Assembly (NCBI GenBank): GCA_019359125.1
Contig: JAHHHY010000001.1
Span: 372,001 to 436,000 of the forward strand
Direction of reading: 5' to 3'
DNA: 64,000 nt
Source: Pleurocapsa minor GSE-CHR-MK 17-07R
Lineage (GTDB): Bacteria; Chloroflexota; Anaerolineae; Aggregatilineales; Phototrophicaceae
In this document: positions 25,682 through 35,132 of the stretch, in pieces
Layout of the letters: each line of letters begins with the position of its first letter
Position numbering within the stretch: position 1 is the first letter of the stretch
Translations under genes and position numbers: made by a program
The notes under the pieces: model-generated
Told to the model about the DNA's origin: nothing
Seen by the model: the letters and a program-made list of their open reading frames with translations, nothing else
Database searches by the model: none

Positions 25682-26686
25682 ATGAAAGTAGTCGTCATTG
25701 GCGCGGGGCGTATCGGCAAGCTGCACGCTGAAAATCTGGCCTATCGTATTCCAGGCACGAGCGTGATTGGCATCGCGGATGTCAACCAGGCCGCCGCACA
25801 GGAAACCGCGACGCGCCTGAAAATCCCACGCGTCGCGACCGATTATCATGACCTGATCGGCCTGCCCGAGGCGGATGCGGTGGTCATCTGCTCCGCGACT
25901 GATACGCACACCGATATCATCACGGCGGCGGCGCAGGCGGGCAAGCACATCTTCTGCGAGAAGCCGATTGACCTGAACCTCGGTCGCATCGACCGGGCGC
26001 TGGAGGCGGTGGAGAAGGCCGGCGTGAAGCTGCAAATCGGCTTCAACCGGCGCTTTGACCCGAATTTCCGGCGCGTGCGCGATGCTGTCATTCGCGGTGA
26101 AGTGGGCACGCCACAGCGCCTGCATATCATCAGCCGAGACCCGGCCCCACCGCCGATCAGCTATGTGAAGGTGTCGGGCGGTATTTTTGTCGACATGACC
26201 ATTCACGACTTTGATATGGCGCGCTACCTGATTGGCAGCGAAATTGAGGAAGTGTATGCCAGTGCAGCGGTGATGGTTGATCCCGCGATTGGGGAGGCCG
26301 GTGACGTGGATACCGCGCTGATCGTGCTGCGCTTTGCCAATGGCGTGATCGGCAGCATCGACAACAGCCGCAAAGCGGTGTACGGCTATGACCAGCGCGT
26401 GGAAGTGTTTGGCTCTGAGGGCAGCATCCAAACGGAGAACAATTACCCCAACAGCGCAATCATCAGCACTGCGGCTTCGGTGCGCCGGGACCTGCCGCTG
26501 AATTTCTTCCTCGAACGGTATTCAGAAAGCTACGTGAACGAAATGAAAGACTTCGTCACGGCTGTGGAGGAGGGCGGCGAGGTGCCCGTCGGCGGCTTTG
26601 ACGGAAAGCAGGCGGTCGTCGTCGGCATGGCAGCACGCAAGTCATTTGACGAGAAGCGCCCGGTCAGGCTGAGCGAGATTTCCTGA
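25682..26686 (+). CDS. Gfo/Idh/MocA-family dehydrogenase (inositol 2-dehydrogenase-like)
   Basis: A 334-residue NAD(P)-dependent oxidoreductase. The Rossmann motif is GAGRIG (7-12). The catalytic EKP is in FCEKPIDLN, and the substrate region has GFNRRFDPNF and the D-x-x-x-H element DMTIHDFDMARYL. The combination is very like bacterial IolG (myo-inositol 2-dehydrogenase), but other sugar or polyol substrates are possible. No iolB, iolC, iolD or iolE is nearby, so a full inositol pathway is not supported here. It lies 19 bases after the metallo-hydrolase-fold gene. Confidence 0.9.
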   Translation: MKVVVIGAGRIGKLHAENLAYRIPGTSVIGIADVNQAAAQETATRLKIPRVATDYHDLIGLPEADAVVICSATDTHTDIITAAAQAGKHIFCEKPIDLNLGRIDRALEAVEKAGVKLQIGFNRRFDPNFRRVRDAVIRGEVGTPQRLHIISRDPAPPPISYVKVSGGIFVDMTIHDFDMARYLIGSEIEEVYASAAVMVDPAIGEAGDVDTALIVLRFANGVIGSIDNSRKAVYGYDQRVEVFGSEGSIQTENNYPNSAIISTAASVRRDLPLNFFLERYSESYVNEMKDFVTAVEEGGEVPVGGFDGKQAVVVGMAARKSFDEKRPVRLSEIS

Positions 26687-28950: not shown

Positions 28951-29640
28951 CTAAGACCCTTGTGCGGCGGCCAGCAGCTCAAGGAATTCGCGTGCCATTG
29001 GCATGGTCGGGTTGCCGCGCGTGGTGCTGGAGAAGCGCGGAATCGACACATTGAGCACGACATTGCCCTGGCGCATCAGCCCAAGGGAACCGTAGGTGCC
29101 ACCGCCGAAAACATTCGGTTCAGGGAAGCCATCTTCAGGGCTGCCGCCTTCAAGCTGGCGCTGGCCAGAGCGATTGTCGTAGTAGGCCTGCGCCGCTTCT
29201 TCGGTCGTGAAGACCGCAATTGTCACTTCTGCTGCGCCGCCGCCTGCCTCCGAGAAGAACACGCGCCCGGCATGGCCGCCTTCGACATTGGGATTGGTCA
29301 CAGCGTTTCCGGTGACGGCATCATTGGTGCGGCGCCACTGGATGGTGCCGGCTGTGATCGGGTTGGGCATGGAGGCAATCACAGCATCGACAAGTGCCTG
29401 CTCGGCCGAGACAGCGACCACGACTTCTGGTTCCGGCGCTTCTGTCGCCAGCTCCGTGATCGATCCGTCCGCGTTTGGCGTATTGGTTGGCGCGGGCGTA
29501 CTGGTGGGCGGGCGCGTAGCGGTTGGCTCTGGCGTATTGGTGGGCGTGGCGGTCGGCGTGTAGTCCAGGCCCTCCGGGGCACATCCCGCCGCGACAAAGG
29601 CGAGCAGGGCGCCCGCGGCAATCATTTTCAAACGCATCAT
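28951..29640 (-). CDS. Secreted lipoprotein with Thr/Pro-rich linker
   Basis: A 229-residue lipoprotein. The ATG at 29640 has AAGGAG five bases upstream. The signal peptide ends in a lipobox (VAAGC), so the mature protein starts at a lipidated cysteine. A 35-residue linker of TPT-, NTP- and TPAP-type repeats follows, then a compact domain of about 160 residues (from AEQALVDAVIASMPNPI). It has a conserved-looking strand set, AEVTIAVFTTEEAAQAYYDN and GSLGLMRQGNVVLNVSI, but I do not recognise the domain. It is the last gene after the sugar importer on the minus strand, 51 bases behind the ATPase stop, and could be an accessory binding factor. Confidence 0.75.
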   Translation of the reverse strand: MMRLKMIAAGALLAFVAAGCAPEGLDYTPTATPTNTPEPTATRPPTSTPAPTNTPNADGSITELATEAPEPEVVVAVSAEQALVDAVIASMPNPITAGTIQWRRTNDAVTGNAVTNPNVEGGHAGRVFFSEAGGGAAEVTIAVFTTEEAAQAYYDNRSGQRQLEGGSPEDGFPEPNVFGGGTYGSLGLMRQGNVVLNVSIPRFSSTTRGNPTMPMAREFLELLAAAQGS

Positions 29641-29691: not shown

Positions 29692-30483
29692 CTACTCCTC
29701 GACGACATCGGGCAGCTTCAGGCGGTCGGGCACTGCGCCAGACATGACCATCTGCGCCACTTCCATCTCGGTCACTTCGTGCTTGTAAAAATCGCCGATT
29801 TTGCGCCCGCCGCGAATGATCGTGAAGCGGTCGGCGACTTCATGCACGTGGGCGATATTGTGGGTGATGAAGATCACTGACATGCCGCGTTCTTTGGCGC
29901 GACGGGTATAGTTCAGCACCTCGCCCGTCTGCTTGACGGAGAGTGCCGAGGTGGGCTCGTCCAGGATGAGCAGCTTCTTGCCGAAGTAGACGGCGCGGCC
30001 GATTGCGATCGACTGGCGCTCACCGCCGGACATCATGGCGACAGCTTCCTCTGCGTTGCGGATACGAATACCGATATCCAGCAGCGCCTCGCGGGCCTGC
30101 TCGGCCATCGCCTTGTGATTGAGCGTCTTGAACGGGCCGAACCCGCGCGTGAGCTCCTGGCCCAGCCAGAAATTGCGGGCGATGCTCATCAGCGGCACCA
30201 GCGCCAGGTCCTGATAGACCGTCTCAATGCCAATGTCGCGGGCATCGTGCGGCGAATTGATGAAGACTGGTTTGCCTTCGAAATAAATCTGACCGCGGGT
30301 GGGGGTATGCATGCCCGTGAGAATCTTGATGAGCGTGCTTTTGCCGGCGCCATTGTCCCCCAGCAGGCCGACGATTTCCTGCCGGTCGACCCTGAAATCG
30401 ACACCGCGCAGGGCCTCCACCGTGCCAAATTGTTTGACGATACCTTTCATTTCCACCAGTGGTGTGGTCGCTTTGTCGTTCAT
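29692..30483 (-). CDS. CUT2-type sugar ABC transporter, ATP-binding subunit (FrcA-like)
   Basis: A 263-residue single-domain ATPase. Motifs: Walker A GDNGAGKST, Q-loop VYQDLALVPL, signature MSGGERQSI, Walker B LLILDEP and H-loop ITHN. Ribose-family (CUT2) importers usually have a fused double ATPase of about 500 residues. The single-domain form seen here is known for the fructose FrcA type, which acts as a homodimer. It starts 4 bases after the permease stop, so both belong to one unit with the binding protein upstream. Confidence 0.93.
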   Translation of the reverse strand: MNDKATTPLVEMKGIVKQFGTVEALRGVDFRVDRQEIVGLLGDNGAGKSTLIKILTGMHTPTRGQIYFEGKPVFINSPHDARDIGIETVYQDLALVPLMSIARNFWLGQELTRGFGPFKTLNHKAMAEQAREALLDIGIRIRNAEEAVAMMSGGERQSIAIGRAVYFGKKLLILDEPTSALSVKQTGEVLNYTRRAKERGMSVIFITHNIAHVHEVADRFTIIRGGRKIGDFYKHEVTEMEVAQMVMSGAVPDRLKLPDVVEE

Positions 30484-30486
30484 TCT

Positions 30487-32559
30487 TTATGTCCTCACCC
30501 GGCGGACAGCCGTATTGATGACCACTGCGACGATGATGATGATGCCCTGCACGCCGAAGAACACGCGCGGGTCCATGCCGACCAGCACCAGGCCCGTGCG
30601 CAGCAGGCCGAAGATCAGCACGCCGAGCAGCGCGCCAACGATGCTGCCATAGCCACCTGTGAGGAGCACGCCGCCGATGACGGATGCAGCGATGACTTCC
30701 AGCTCCAGGCCGTCGCCGAGATTGGCATTGACCGACCCCACGCGCGAGACGAAGGTGATGCCTGCGACACCGCAGAGCACCGCGCAGATGATAAAGTTGG
30801 TAATTTTGACGCGGGAAACGCTGATACCCTGCGCGCGCGCTGCGCCGGCATTGCCGCCGACTGCGAACGTAAAGCCGCCGTAACGCATCTGCGTCAGGAT
30901 GAACTGGAAGACGATGACCAGCAGGAACCACCAGAACACACCCGTGCGCAGGTTGATATCAGCGGTCAGGCGGCCGAAGATCGGCAGTGATTCGATGCGT
31001 CCGTTGGCCAGGTCGAAGAAGCTGATGCGCAGCATTTCATCCGTGCGGCTTAACAGGTCGGCGATGCCGCTGAAGATGAACAGCGCAAGACCTGCAATCG
31101 CGGCCGTAACCACGGCTGACCACAGCGCAGACGTCACGATGGCCACATCGCGGAAGGGAGCAGTGGTCTCGCGGTAGGTGACAATGCGCCGGCGCACGCC
31201 ACCCCACATGGTTGGAAGCTGCCGGATGGCATAGTAAGCGAGTGCCAGCCCGCCCATGACGAGCAGGGCAATCAGCAGGAAGGGGCTAAAGTCGATGAAG
31301 GGGTCCGGAATGCCGTAGTCGGCATAGCGGATGATGCGGCCCTCAGGAATGAGCACGAGCGGAATGGCGCGATAGGCCAGCAGGGTGCCCAGGGTCACAA
31401 TGAATGACGGAATCCCTGTTCGTATCAGCAGCACGCCGTTGATAAATCCGAGGAAACCGGCAAAGACCAGCGAAAGCAGCGCGGCGATGACGGCGTTCAT
31501 CGGGGGCAGGCCGAATACGCCTTCAGTCATGGCCAGGATGAAGATTAGCGCGCTGGCCCCGAAGATGGAGCCGACCGAGAGGTCAAACTCGCCGGAGATC
31601 ATGAGCAGCGTGATGCCGATGGCAACAATGCCATTGGTCACATTGGTCGAGAGCGCGCTGGCGATGGCGCGTGGCTCCAGAAACAGCGACGATGCCAGCG
31701 AGAAGCCGATCAGCAGCGCGGCGAGGCCGATGATCGCGCCTGCGCCAGGCGACTTTGCCAGGCGATTGCGGATGCTCTGGTCGGCACTCAAATCGACAGC
31801 CAGCGTGAGATAGCGATAGGTGGAGATGGCCGAGAGCACCAGAATCAGCGGCAGGGCCACCAGCTCCAGCACACCCGGAATATTGTCGAGGGCGGTGCCC
31901 CCGGGGGGTACAACGCTGTAGATGTCGATCCCGCCGGAGAACAGGGCCATCATCATAAGCAGCACGGTGAGGAGCGATACCCATTGTGCCCATGCCCAGG
32001 CGCGCCTGTCACGGCGGAGCAGGAAGATCAGGGTGCGGCCATTGAGAAGTGCGCCAAGCACCCCTAAACCGACGACGACCCACTCGATGGTATTGATATC
32101 GCGCCGGCTGATGTTGGCGCGTTCGCCCAGGGGCAGCCATCCCGTGAGCACCTGCTCAATCAGGAAGATGGACACGGCAAACAGCAGGCCAATCAGCGCA
32201 GTGGTAAACAGGACGCCGGGGGAACGCAGCGACACCCGACCGCCCAGATAGTCTTCCATGGAAGGGGTGGCCGGATGGCGCAGGAATCCCCAGGCCGTGT
32301 ACAGGCTCAGCAGCCCCCACACGATGCCACCGGCCGCCAGCAGCAGCTCGATGAGGTTCAGCTCCCTGCGGCTGATATTGGCACGCTCGCCAAAGGCCAG
32401 CCAGCCGGTGAGGATCTGCTCGGAAAAGAGCAAGCTTAGCAGGCCGGTCACGACCAGCAGGATGATCGTGGCCGTAAATTTACTGTTTCGGAGAAGTTTG
32501 CGTTCGGGAGAATACTGGCCAGAAGCCAGCATATCAGCGCTTGAAGAAGCGTTTGCCAT
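30487..32559 (-). CDS. CUT2-type sugar ABC permease with enlarged N-terminus and mid-protein insert
   Basis: A 690-residue membrane protein, about twice the size of ribose-type permeases (usually 310-350). The RbsC-like core is split. Residues 290-440 carry TNVTNGIVAIGITLLMISGEFDLSVGS-type helices (given here as the span 306-332) and IPSFIVTLGTLLAYR. Residues 555-690 carry YGGFTFAVGGNAGAARAQGI, ASVIGGVLLTGGYGSIVGALLG and the tail. Between them is an extra stretch of about 110 residues (441-550) with an additional hydrophobic segment. The N-terminal 285 residues add about 6 hydrophobic segments and contain a duplicated module: EQILTGWLAFGERANISRR (47-65) and EQVLTGWLPLGERANISRR (135-153). The start at 32559 has AAGG upstream. 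Confidence 0.9.
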   Translation of the reverse strand: MANASSSADMLASGQYSPERKLLRNSKFTATIILLVVTGLLSLLFSEQILTGWLAFGERANISRRELNLIELLLAAGGIVWGLLSLYTAWGFLRHPATPSMEDYLGGRVSLRSPGVLFTTALIGLLFAVSIFLIEQVLTGWLPLGERANISRRDINTIEWVVVGLGVLGALLNGRTLIFLLRRDRRAWAWAQWVSLLTVLLMMMALFSGGIDIYSVVPPGGTALDNIPGVLELVALPLILVLSAISTYRYLTLAVDLSADQSIRNRLAKSPGAGAIIGLAALLIGFSLASSLFLEPRAIASALSTNVTNGIVAIGITLLMISGEFDLSVGSIFGASALIFILAMTEGVFGLPPMNAVIAALLSLVFAGFLGFINGVLLIRTGIPSFIVTLGTLLAYRAIPLVLIPEGRIIRYADYGIPDPFIDFSPFLLIALLVMGGLALAYYAIRQLPTMWGGVRRRIVTYRETTAPFRDVAIVTSALWSAVVTAAIAGLALFIFSGIADLLSRTDEMLRISFFDLANGRIESLPIFGRLTADINLRTGVFWWFLLVIVFQFILTQMRYGGFTFAVGGNAGAARAQGISVSRVKITNFIICAVLCGVAGITFVSRVGSVNANLGDGLELEVIAASVIGGVLLTGGYGSIVGALLGVLIFGLLRTGLVLVGMDPRVFFGVQGIIIIVAVVINTAVRRVRT
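32101..32157 (-). repeat. Second copy of the GERANISRR module within the permease gene
   Basis: Encodes permease residues 135-153 (EQVLTGWLPLGERANISRR). It matches the first copy at 16 of 19 residues, with an 88-residue offset. The DNA has drifted between copies, so this is an old duplication under protein-level selection rather than a fresh DNA repeat. Confidence 0.85.
32365..32421 (-). repeat. First copy of the GERANISRR module within the permease gene
   Basis: Encodes permease residues 47-65 (EQILTGWLAFGERANISRR). In both copies the module follows a hydrophobic helix and precedes another (NLIELLLAAGGIVWGLL here, NTIEWVVVGLGVLGALL in the second copy), so the duplicated unit is a helix - loop - helix. 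Confidence 0.85.
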
Positions 32560-32696: not shown

Positions 32697-33686
32697 TTAG
32701 CGGTAACCACCAGCGGTCAGGTCGATGATGGCGGCGACGTTGCTGCCGTCAATCACGCCGGGGCCGGTGAAGATATCGCCACCCGGGGCCATTTCAAACT
32801 GGCTGTTCAGGTACAGCCACATGATGGTCTGGAAGCCCTGGAGGTACGGCTGCTGGTCGATGGTCTGCAGCAGGTAGCCGTCCTGGATCATCTGATAGAT
32901 TTCAGCCGATGTGTCGTGGCTGGTGGCGAACAGTGAGCCAGCTTCGCGGCCGCTTTCCTGCAGGTACAGGTTCAGGCCGGACGACGGAGCGGGGCCAAGC
33001 ATGAAGATGGCGTTGGTGTCCGCGTTGGCGGCGAAGTAGTCCGACAGGATACCAGCGGTTTCTTCGGGGTTGTTGGTGATGTTCAGGCGGTCAATCGGCA
33101 CGCCCATCTCATCAAACACGCTTTCCACGCCGGCGCAGCGGGCTTCGAGGCCACTGTGGCCCTGTTCCTGGATGGTGCAGACGCCACGGGTGACGCTGGT
33201 GCCAGCGGCTGCGGCTTCAGCGAATACGCGCTGGGCGTTGCTGATACCACCGGTGAATTCGTTCGCGCCGATGTAAAACAGCGTGGGCAGTGCGGAGTCG
33301 GTGCCAGCACCCGGGTCAGCCGTGTTAAACACGATGACGGGGATGTCGAGCTCGGCAGCACGTTCCACACCGCTGCGGATGACTTCAGCATCGGGCACGG
33401 TGGTGCCGACGCCAGCCGGATTCAGGGCGAGGGCATCATCCCAGTAGCCAGCCATCTGTTCCAGGCCGTAGTCCGGCTCGGACAGCCACTGGCAGTTAGC
33501 GTCCAGCAGCGTACAGGCGTCTTCCATACCCTTGATAACGACAATCCAGAACGGATTGCTCACGCCGCCGTGGCTGACCATAGCAAAGGTCAGTGCGTCG
33601 TCCTGAGCACCGGCTACACCGACCCCTACCGACACAGCGCCGGCAGCGAGCAGTCCTGCTGCGAGAACACGAGCGATCTTACGCAT
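32697..33686 (-). CDS. Sugar-binding protein of the CUT2 ABC importer (periplasmic-binding protein type 1)
   Basis: A 329-residue secreted binding protein with AAGGAG 8 bases before its ATG. The signal peptide ends near VAGA, before QDD, with no lipobox. The fold is the RbsB-like type: FAMVSHGGVSNPFWIVVIKGMEDAC, then PDAEVIRSGVERAAELDIPVIVFN and TIDQQPYLQGFQTIMWLYL, the hallmark C-terminal segment of sugar-binding members. Cysteine pairs (DACTLLDANC, GVCT/ARCAG) suggest disulfides. It heads the importer set (binding protein - permease - ATPase) and is divergent from xylose isomerase, so a pentose is the most likely cargo, by context only. Confidence 0.92.
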   Translation of the reverse strand: MRKIARVLAAGLLAAGAVSVGVGVAGAQDDALTFAMVSHGGVSNPFWIVVIKGMEDACTLLDANCQWLSEPDYGLEQMAGYWDDALALNPAGVGTTVPDAEVIRSGVERAAELDIPVIVFNTADPGAGTDSALPTLFYIGANEFTGGISNAQRVFAEAAAAGTSVTRGVCTIQEQGHSGLEARCAGVESVFDEMGVPIDRLNITNNPEETAGILSDYFAANADTNAIFMLGPAPSSGLNLYLQESGREAGSLFATSHDTSAEIYQMIQDGYLLQTIDQQPYLQGFQTIMWLYLNSQFEMAPGGDIFTGPGVIDGSNVAAIIDLTAGGYR

Positions 33687-33846
33687 ACAAGAAACTCCTT
33701 AAATAGAAACCCACTTTTTCAATATGCCTCGAACGACCCGCAGAAGGGAGTTCGCCTGAGACCAAGCTTTGAGGTAGAGAGCGGTGCGATGGTACCGATG
33801 TCATGATTGAGATTATTGCTCTCTAATAAAAATAGTATATCGAGGC

Positions 33847-33862
33847 TTTGCGACAATGCAAA
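33847..33862. promoter_or_regulatory. Candidate operator (TTTGC-N6-GCAAA palindrome) between divergent sugar genes
   Basis: A perfect 5-bp inverted repeat TTTGC/GCAAA with a 6-base centre in the 279-base gap between the sugar-binding-protein gene (minus) and xylose isomerase (plus). A TATACT -10-like element for the isomerase lies at 33907-33912 with no good -35. The palindrome may bind a dimeric regulator, but no regulator gene lies next to it. The rest of the gap shows nothing clear. Confidence 0.35.
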
Positions 33863-33965
33863 TATTTTCTTCCCTGTGACTGACTACTTGTTTGCGCCGT
33901 GCGCGCTATACTGGGGCAGTACTGTCATGCCATGGGCAAAATTGTATTTGAAAGGAACATTCATT

Positions 33966-35132
33966 GTGACTGATTTTCAGCCGCTTCCGGAACATCGTTT
34001 TACGTTTGGGCTGTGGACGATCGGCAATGTGGGGCGTGACCCGTTTGGCCTGCCCACCCGCGATCCAATAGACCCGGTGGATATTGTGCATGTGCTGGCC
34101 GAGGTTGGTGCGTACGGCGTGAATTACCACGACAATGACCTGGTGCCGATTGATGCCACGCTGGCCGAGGAACGCGCCATTGTGGAGCGCTTCAGGAAGG
34201 CTTTGGCTGAGACGGGCGTGAAGATGCCGATGGCCACCACCAATACGTTCAGCGATCCTATTTTCAAGGATGGGGCGTTTACGTCAAATGATGCCCGCGT
34301 GCGCGCCTACGCCATGCAGAAGGTCATCCGGACGATGGATATTGCCGTGGAGCTGGGCGCCGAGACCTTTGTCTTCTGGGGCGGGCGCGAAGGCACCGAG
34401 ACAGATGCCAGCAAGAGTGCTGCTGATGCTGTAAAGCGCATGCGTGACGCGATCAATTTTTTCTGCGAGTATGCGCTTAGCCAGAAGTACAATCTCAGGT
34501 TTGCCATGGAGGCAAAGCCCAACGAGCCGCGCAGTGACCTGTATCTGCCGACGACTGGCGCGATGCTTGGGTTTATCGCCACGCTGGATCACCCGGAGAT
34601 GGTGGGCGTGAACCCGGAAGTGGCGCACGAACATATGGCCGGACTGAACTTCATGCACGCGATCGCGCAGGCATGGGAGGCGGGCAAGCTGTTTCACATT
34701 GACCTGAATGACCAGTTGTTTGGGCGCTACGACCAGGACTTCCGCTTTGGCTCTGCGATGATCAAGCAGAACTTCTTCCTGGTGAAGTTCCTGGAGGACG
34801 TGGGCTATGCAGGGTGCAAACACTTTGACGCGCATGCCTATCGCACGGAAGACCTGGATGGGGTGAAGGACTTTGCGCGTGGGTGCATGCGTTCGTACCT
34901 GATCCTGAAAGACAAGGCGGCGCGCTTTAATGCAGATGCCGAGATTCAGGGTCTGCTGCGTGAAATCAATGCGTTTGATGGCGGATTTGACTATCTGAAG
35001 GGCGGTTTTTCGCAGGACGCGCTGGAAAAACTGCGTGCTCATGAGTTTGACCGTGCGGCGATTGCCAGACGCGGCCTGAAGTATGAACGCCTCGATCAGC
35101 TGACGTTCGAGATTATCACCGGCGTTCGCTAG
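33966..35132 (+). CDS. xylA: Xylose isomerase, class I (actinobacterial type)
   Basis: A 388-residue TIM-barrel enzyme that interconverts D-xylose and D-xylulose (and often glucose and fructose) with two divalent metals. The GTG at 33966 follows GAAAGGA and gives the exact family length. The 53-codon upstream extension is not conserved. Key segments: HRFTFGLWTIGNVGRDPFG, NYHDNDLVP with the catalytic His, MATTNTFSDPIFKDGAFT, VFWGGREG, AMEAKPNEPRSD (metal-binding Glu, Lys), NPEVAHEHMAGLNF and LFHIDLNDQ. It resembles Streptomyces-type short enzymes rather than the longer class II. No xylulokinase gene is in the window. A strong terminator follows. Confidence 0.97.
   Translation: MTDFQPLPEHRFTFGLWTIGNVGRDPFGLPTRDPIDPVDIVHVLAEVGAYGVNYHDNDLVPIDATLAEERAIVERFRKALAETGVKMPMATTNTFSDPIFKDGAFTSNDARVRAYAMQKVIRTMDIAVELGAETFVFWGGREGTETDASKSAADAVKRMRDAINFFCEYALSQKYNLRFAMEAKPNEPRSDLYLPTTGAMLGFIATLDHPEMVGVNPEVAHEHMAGLNFMHAIAQAWEAGKLFHIDLNDQLFGRYDQDFRFGSAMIKQNFFLVKFLEDVGYAGCKHFDAHAYRTEDLDGVKDFARGCMRSYLILKDKAARFNADAEIQGLLREINAFDGGFDYLKGGFSQDALEKLRAHEFDRAAIARRGLKYERLDQLTFEIITGVR

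What the first reader, a model, noticed from the sequence alone, without database searches (positions are those of the whole stretch)
30487..32559. CUT2 sugar permease enlarged to 690 residues with a duplicated GERANISRR helix-loop-helix and a mid-protein insert
Seen directly: ribose-type permeases have about 310-350 residues, but this one has 690. Its N-terminal 285 residues add several hydrophobic segments and carry EQ(I/V)LTGWLxxGERANISRR twice, 88 residues apart. The core is also split by about 110 residues with an extra hydrophobic segment (441-550). Inference: the extra parts could form a built-in membrane module, perhaps a dock for the binding protein or an in-membrane regulator. I know of no named family with this form, though I could not search.
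Basis: partly seen in the sequence, partly recalled or inferred. Interest (0 to 1): 0.72.

Follow-up and report, generated by a model that had tools for sequence, protein, structure and literature searches.

The report
Sugar importer with added membrane module
A bacterial sugar-importer membrane protein has gained six extra membrane helices, and in its relatives these go together with a new surface lipoprotein gene, so the importer probably has a fourth, undescribed part.

Summary
On the minus strand lies a 690-residue CUT2 (RbsC/XylH-type) permease whose first ~255 residues are predicted as six membrane helices carrying two copies of GW-LGERANISRR. It is not a mis-fusion: 58 of 80 kept relatives carry the module, and long forms make one Chloroflexota clade. 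The mid-protein insert is not new; E. coli XylH has a hairpin at the same place. No Pfam family matched the module convincingly.

A lipoprotein gene follows the ATPase gene in 51 of 51 long-form loci with room to show it and in 0 of 21 short-form loci. In the order, 65 of 154 genomes have module and lipoprotein, 3 and 3 only one. The lipoprotein domain resembles the PknH extracellular sensor. Best reading: a four-part importer whose module is a membrane scaffold docking this lipoprotein. Docking is inferred; co-evolution support was weak. In 20 relatives the lipoprotein gene has a conserved in-frame TGA, in most followed by a hairpin.

The parts
30487..32559 (-). extended CUT2 permease, 690 aa (P0001)
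   Evidence: PF02653 107.1 bits against a cut-off of 26.8
31807..32508 (-). N-terminal module, residues 18-251, six predicted membrane helices
   Evidence: AlphaFold model, mean pLDDT 90; conserved in the 48 long-form rows of A2
32365..32418 (-). first copy of the GERANISRR motif, residues 48-65
32101..32154 (-). second copy of the GERANISRR motif, residues 136-153; the hairpin present in all long forms aligned (W141 in 48 of 48)
30490..31788 (-). permease core, residues 258-690
   Evidence: PF02653, best stretch 428-679; structural match to HmuU Z 14.6 and BtuC Z 13.9
31048..31284 (-). mid-protein insert, residues 426-504, XylH-type helical hairpin
   Evidence: helices; alignment with E. coli XylH and RbsC
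32697..33686 (-). sugar-binding protein; signal peptide without lipobox
   Evidence: PF13407 99.3 bits; N-terminus
29692..30483 (-). ATPase, 263 aa, one nucleotide-binding domain
   Evidence: PF00005; one Walker A, one signature, one Walker B
28951..29640 (-). accessory lipoprotein: lipobox (AAGC), Thr/Pro-rich linker, C-terminal domain of about 140 residues with PknH-like predicted fold
   Evidence: 51 nt after the ATPase gene; no Pfam hit; fold Z 11.8 to 4esq

Best explanation
Shown: this is the membrane subunit of a CUT2-type ABC sugar importer, encoded in the order binding protein, permease, single-domain ATPase, lipoprotein. Within one Chloroflexota lineage the permease carries an added N-terminal module of membrane hairpins; in the sub-clade of the window one hairpin with its GW-LGERANISRR loop is present twice (duplicated here, or lost in the other sub-clade). 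Inferred: the extra helices pack against the outside of the permease as a fixed scaffold, their conserved loops facing the outer side of the membrane (six helices placed before a core that, as recalled for RbsC, begins in the cytoplasm), and these loops hold the lipid-anchored, PknH-fold lipoprotein. The lipoprotein on its flexible linker would then hold or steer the soluble binding protein over the permease, or report on the cell surface to the transporter. It would work like the SiaQ part of TRAP transporters, which enlarges the scaffold and forms part of the binding-protein dock.
For: Module and lipoprotein co-occur: 51/51 against 0/21 testable loci among the 80 kept; 65 of 154 order genomes have both, 83 neither, 3 + 3 one only; phylum sample 2 of 400 for each, the same two genomes. 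One long-form clade, 48 of 70 rows, support 100/99, with non-module outgroups. Loop residues conserved: W141 48/48, G145 47/48, R147 43/48, R152 43/48, N156 and E159 48/50, R175 48/48, W193 48/48. Confident model, pLDDT 90, pTM 0.82. Lipoprotein model close to extracytoplasmic domains: PknH Z 11.8, 130 residues, 2.7 A; RseB Z 8.6, 96 residues, 3.0 A. TRAP precedent: PMC9971032, passages read. Partial correlation lipoprotein-module 0.20, reached by 0 of 500 permutations.
Against: Adjacent genes in one lineage are inherited together, so co-occurrence does not prove contact. The co-evolution signal is weak and not specific: lipoprotein-module partial r is 0.20 overall but 0.03 and 0.15 inside the two sub-clades; lipoprotein-ATPase is 0.17 and lipoprotein-binding protein 0.16 overall, the latter 0.39 and 0.18 inside the sub-clades, higher than for the module. 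Positive-inside counts do not clearly fix the topology: the GERAN loops carry 2.2-2.5 K+R on average, much like two of the loops assigned to the inside (2.2-2.3). Three other readable binding proteins of this genome also lack a lipobox; whether their permeases carry extensions was not looked at beyond the absence of further module hits in the genome. No complex could be modelled here.
Confidence: 0.4

Rival explanations
1. Passive accretion: the permease family tolerates extra membrane hairpins at several sites, and the N-terminal ones merely stabilise or pad the protein; the lipoprotein is an operon neighbour with a separate job.
For: Further hydrophobic insertions at other sites in relatives, e.g. 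roughly 150 residues in L062/L071 and about 50 or more between core helices in L006, L007, L010, L013, L017, L045; the mid insert is another; weak co-evolution.
Against: Sharp conservation of loop residues and of W193 in 48 of 48 rows and the strict joint presence with the lipoprotein look like function.
Confidence: 0.25
2. Binding-protein dock: the module's outer loops hold the soluble binding protein directly.
For: The binding protein has no lipobox; the module sits on the same polypeptide as the permease core that the binding protein must meet.
Against: Short-form relatives such as L052, L066 and L067 have lipobox-free binding proteins without the module; module-binding protein partial correlation is -0.35.
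Confidence: 0.15
3. In-membrane regulator: module and lipoprotein form a sensor pair, as in PknH or RseB, that gates the transporter or signals sugar supply or envelope state.
For: PknH extracellular domain and RseB are among the closest folds of the lipoprotein model.
Against: None of the four genes of the unit is a kinase or other known signalling protein; flanking genes of the relatives were only compared with nine window genes, so a signalling partner was not searched for. A shared fold shows no function.
Confidence: 0.17
4. Artefact: N-terminal part belongs to another gene, or wrong start.
For: One relative, L003, is broken by a frameshift inside the module.
Against: The module lies in frames of 598-838 aa in all but a few matches of the order search (exceptions: 441 aa at a contig end, 207 aa in G481, and the 147-aa first half in G458) and in the 48 long-form rows of A2.
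Confidence: 0.01

Closest known systems
E. coli XylH (xylose ABC permease) and the GguB/XylH type of CUT2 permeases
   Same: Core sequence (39% over 137 residues) and an extra hairpin between the same core helices; best NCBIfam hit is GguB.
   Different: XylH has 393 residues and no N-terminal module; the GguB score of 143 is far below its cut-off of 450.
E. coli RbsC (ribose permease), CUT2 type
   Same: The core can be aligned over its length; RbsC too is encoded beside a binding protein and an ATPase.
   Different: No N-terminal module, no mid insert. A survey of 17 CUT2 membrane proteins predicts 7-12 membrane segments (PMC3654945, topology section read); here about 18 long helices are predicted.
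TRAP transporter SiaQM, SiaQ subunit (PMC9971032)
   Same: Extra membrane helices rich in Trp near the membrane surface beside the transport unit of a binding-protein-dependent importer (passages); an analogy only.
   Different: Different transporter class and energy source; no sequence or fold relation tested.
PknH extracellular sensor domain (4esq), for the lipoprotein
   Same: Predicted fold: Z 11.8, rmsd 2.7 A, 130 residues aligned.
   Different: 13% identity; Pfam PknH_C matches 1 of 53 members, at E 0.068; lipid-anchored protein, no kinase.

Membership tests
CUT2 permease (PF02653 BPD_transp_2) | match to the permease domain above the curated cut-off | tested here: met
   107.1 bits against 26.8
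CUT2 permease (PF02653 BPD_transp_2) | operon with a Peripla_BP_4 binding protein and an ABC ATPase | tested here: met
   PF13407 99.3 bits, PF00005 107.6 bits; gaps of 137 and 3 nt
CUT2 permease (PF02653 BPD_transp_2) | BtuC-like (type II importer) fold of the core; that CUT2 permeases have it is recalled | tested here: inconclusive
   residues 267-680 align to HmuU, Z 14.6, 258 residues, 5.1 A, BtuC Z 13.9, and the first four rows are all of this type, but the tool warns that helical models can reach such Z by chance, and Foldseek found nothing significant
GguB / XylH equivalogs | score above the NCBIfam cut-off | tested here: not met
   143.4 against 450 bits for NF040906: not filed as GguB or XylH
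GguB / XylH equivalogs | extra hairpin between the core helices at the position seen in XylH | tested here: met
   alignment and hydropathy, XylH segments 176-195 and 214-236
PknH_C (PF14032), lipoprotein | sequence match above the gathering score | tested here: not met
   window member none, 1 of 53 members at E 0.068
PknH_C (PF14032), lipoprotein | fold of the extracellular domain | tested here: met
   Z 11.8 to 4esq and 11.4 and 11.2 to TiME, 11.0 to TM1622, 9.7 to Dip2269; from rank 6 on 8.6 or lower; Foldseek E 5.8e-4 to 4esq
xylose or inositol importer | substrate bound and transported | not testable with these tools
   hints only: xylose isomerase frame (TIGR02631, 541.5 over 447) and inositol 2-dehydrogenase (TIGR04380, 473.1 over 355) nearby; best binding-protein family is the rhizopine type, below its cut-off (155.8 against 420)

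The most novel reading that the evidence does not exclude
A four-component ABC importer: a repeated membrane-hairpin module on the permease is the receptor for a dedicated lipid-anchored PknH-fold protein, which acts as an outer-face operator of uptake. In one sub-lineage the lipoprotein is made in a one-domain and a two-domain form by recoding of a conserved UGA (TGAAGAGA in 20 of 20, a hairpin 11 nt downstream in most of them), in genomes that encode the selenocysteine machinery.
Probability: 0.2. Interest if true: 0.72.

Novelty: new variant of a known kind. Interest (0 to 1): 0.5.

Why it matters
CUT2 importers are usually described as three kinds of part (recalled). A lineage in which the permease grew by six membrane helices, together with an undescribed sensor-fold lipoprotein, would be a natural case for asking how ABC importers gain accessory subunits and how binding proteins are managed in Chloroflexota. 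The UGA junction in the lipoprotein of relatives is a separate, directly testable recoding candidate.

Tried and rejected
Mis-fused gene: rejected. Mid insert as a novelty: rejected by the XylH comparison. Solved relatives by sequence: none for the whole-permease profile at E 0.01 and none for the first 283 residues at E 10. Foldseek on the whole model: 0 of 90 matches reach E 0.001. In the second look, the rows shown that align mainly to residues 7-270 have Z 8.1 or less and are unrelated helical proteins (CusC, LRRC8, a GPCR, designed bundles), so not meaningful; the module was not folded alone. NCBIfam on 53 lipoprotein domains: two families, best E 0.051, taken as chance. Co-evolution test: weak and unspecific. 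Charge-based topology: not decisive. Soluble binding protein as the reason for the module: weakened, since L123, L125/L126 (one frame) and L127 in the same genome also lack a lipobox. Of the 13 loci printed in that call, L132 is the window's own; L124 has an LVAC string near its start that could be a short lipobox; the others were regulators, a kinase or a frame on the other strand that the script picked wrongly and say nothing. Selenocysteine at the UGA: seven genomes have tRNA-Sec, SelB and a SelD with in-frame TGA, but the hairpin of selD in these genomes is unlike the one here; the rule that bacterial SECIS loops hold an early G is recalled, not tested. Literature: ten searches of open-access papers; their listings (titles, starts of abstracts) showed no description of the module or of the lipoprotein; one search found no paper at all; subscription papers are not in that library. 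I read passages of PMC3654945 and its topology section, passages of PMC9971032 and of PMC11075461 (unrelated).

Rows left out: A1 used 38 of 80 fetched loci plus the window. A2 used 67 of 80 plus the window; left out were L003, L022, L031, L034, L037, L038, L039, L040, L044, L047, L051, L070, L076 (frameshift, missing start, truncation, near-copies or a divergent paralogue). A3 used 24 of the 48 module rows, mostly from the window's sub-clade. A4 used the window and 52 of the lipoprotein domains listed. A5 used 17 of 20 split loci; one search folded 12 of 20; dN/dS used 10 of 20; one search used 41 loci.

Full report
WHAT IS THERE. The finding lies on the minus strand: ORF 30487-32559, 690 aa. 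The two motif copies are 88 residues apart and are a true internal repeat (20 identities in 30 residues against a maximum of 12 in 300 shuffles; the profile of residues 112-262 finds copy 1 at E 5.2e-22). AlphaFold with 68 sequences gives mean pLDDT 90 and pTM 0.82, with six long helices in residues 18-251 and the GERAN part of each motif as a short helix in the loop between helices 1-2 and 3-4.

OPERON. On the minus strand the order is binding protein (32697-33686), permease, ATPase (29692-30483), lipoprotein (28951-29640), with gaps of 137, 3 and 51 nt. The ATPase has one nucleotide-binding domain (one Walker A, signature and Walker B); that CUT2 ATPases are more often double is recalled. 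The binding protein has a signal peptide without a lipobox. Near the operon are a xylose isomerase frame and, further off, an inositol 2-dehydrogenase, both above NCBIfam cut-offs. The substrate is therefore open between a pentose, a cyclitol and others.

FAMILY. Of these 80 loci, 58 carry the N-terminal module and 22 do not. The long form occurs in records titled as Chloroflexota or Anaerolineae; the short form with the mid insert (392-454 aa) in Latescibacterota, Gemmatimonadota and a few Anaerolineae; standard 323-328 aa forms in Spirochaetota, one Atribacterota and one Anaerolineales record. A tree of permease cores (70 rows) groups the 48 rows that carry the module in one branch with support 100/99; three of these (L061-L063) were left unlabelled by my 150-residue threshold although they carry it, so the printed group count is 45 rows with 2 changes. 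The tree program warns that long branches among the outgroups may be misplaced. In whole genomes the module profile hits 68 of 154 genomes of the order, 22 of 396 sampled from the class, all 22 in the window's order, and 2 of 400 sampled from the phylum. Other phyla were not searched with the module profile.

THE MODULE. In the long-form rows the second hairpin is universal: W141 48/48, L144 47/48, G145 47/48, R147 43/48, R152 43/48, R175 48/48, Q192 47/48, W193 48/48; N156 and E159 48 of 50. Of the 58 loci, 19 have two profile matches and 39 one. In the 24-member Pfam scan no family matches more than 3 members and the best E is 0.0033.

THE MID INSERT. Alignment of the core with E. coli XylH and RbsC puts the extra hairpin of XylH (hydrophobic segments 176-195 and 214-236) at the same place; RbsC and the Spirochaete and Atribacterota rows lack it. 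It is therefore an older, known variation.

THE PARTNER. After the ATPase gene comes a lipoprotein with lipobox, Thr/Pro-rich linker and a domain of about 140 residues without a Pfam or NCBIfam family. Among the 80 loci, 51 of 51 long forms with at least 600 nt of contig after the ATPase have it, as do 2 long forms with less room; the 5 long forms without it have less than 600 nt or no ATPase on the contig. Of the short forms, 0 of 21 with room have it, and 1 has no room. In the order, 65 of 154 genomes have both, 3 only the module (G459, G461, G481; the contig positions of the first two match L009 and L001, whose contigs end there, and G481's frame is only 207 aa), 3 only a weak lipoprotein-like match (G465-G467, E 4.7e-7 to 9.5e-4), and 83 neither. 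The domain was modelled (pLDDT 88) and resembles the PknH extracellular domain (Foldseek E 5.8e-4; Z 11.8), TiME, TM1622 and, less closely, RseB. Loci with two module copies have one lipoprotein domain (15 of 15 counted); those with one module copy mostly have two (36 of 38). This rests on very few evolutionary events and is only a hint.

MECHANISM. The scaffold-and-dock reading is inferred from conservation, co-occurrence, position and the TRAP precedent. Against it: sequence co-evolution is weak and no stronger for the module than for the binding protein or ATPase inside the sub-clades, topology is not settled by charges, and no complex was modelled.

THE UGA JUNCTION (relatives, not the window). 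In 20 loci the two lipoprotein domains are separated by an in-frame TGA and the second domain starts at once, with no room for a signal peptide. TGAAGAGA is invariant in 20 of 20 although median dS is above 1.1; the second domain is under stronger constraint (omega 0.119) than the first (0.173) (dN/dS on 10 of 20 loci). AGA makes up 4 of 431 arginine codons in 12 permease genes of these loci. Eleven nt after the TGA begins a hairpin of up to 10 bp: protein-preserving shuffles give a mean z of -1.98 in 20 split loci and -0.03 in 8 fused relatives; four split loci (L030, L032, L034, L041) show no excess stability in that test. With dinucleotide shuffles z runs from -0.45 to -4.94 in 12 loci. The covariation score is reached by 0 of 500 shuffles, but the count of pairs changed on both sides does not stand out (3 against a mean of 1.5; 74 of 500 as high). 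RNAalifold on its own gave almost no covariation support. Fused and split forms are mixed on the permease tree. The codon four places after the TGA is TTG or GTG in 20 of 20 split loci, so reinitiation is an alternative. tRNA-Sec, SelB and a SelD with an in-frame TGA are present in 7 of 7 genomes searched, six related ones and the window's own, but the selD hairpin is unlike this one.

VERDICT. A real, conserved addition to a known importer type, undescribed as far as the searches above go; its function is not shown. Of general interest because it points to a probable fourth component.

Noticed in passing
L019, L022, L023, L027-L032, L034-L038, L040-L042, L048, L053, L072 (after the ATPase gene): The two-domain lipoprotein is interrupted by a conserved in-frame TGA (TGAAGAGA 20 of 20), in most loci with a hairpin 11 nt downstream; the second domain is under purifying selection. 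Candidate for UGA recoding or reinitiation.
   Followed up: partly
G000:C22:304596-305531 (locus L151) and six related genomes: selD carries an in-frame TGA; SelB and tRNA-Sec matches are present, so these Chloroflexota probably decode selenocysteine.
   Followed up: partly
L003:4965-7041: The module of this relative is broken into frames of 147 and 598 aa by a frameshift; sequencing error or pseudogene not decided.
   Followed up: no
L062:5004-7247, L071:5004-7505, L006, L007, L010, L013, L017, L045: Further hydrophobic insertions at other loops of the permease core, up to roughly 150 residues in L062 and L071.
   Followed up: no
window 33807-35132 (+) and 25682-26686 (+): Xylose isomerase frame divergent from the importer operon and an inositol 2-dehydrogenase gene; hints at the sugar. 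The first 56 residues of the isomerase frame lie outside the family match, so its start is probably internal.
   Followed up: partly
own genome, loci L123, L125/L126, L127: Other sugar-binding proteins of this genome also have signal peptides without a lipobox.
   Followed up: partly
G465:C70:52071-52460, G467:C10:122039-122197, G466:C4:310998-311393: Weak matches to the lipoprotein domain in larger frames (367-554 aa) of genomes without a module match.
   Followed up: no
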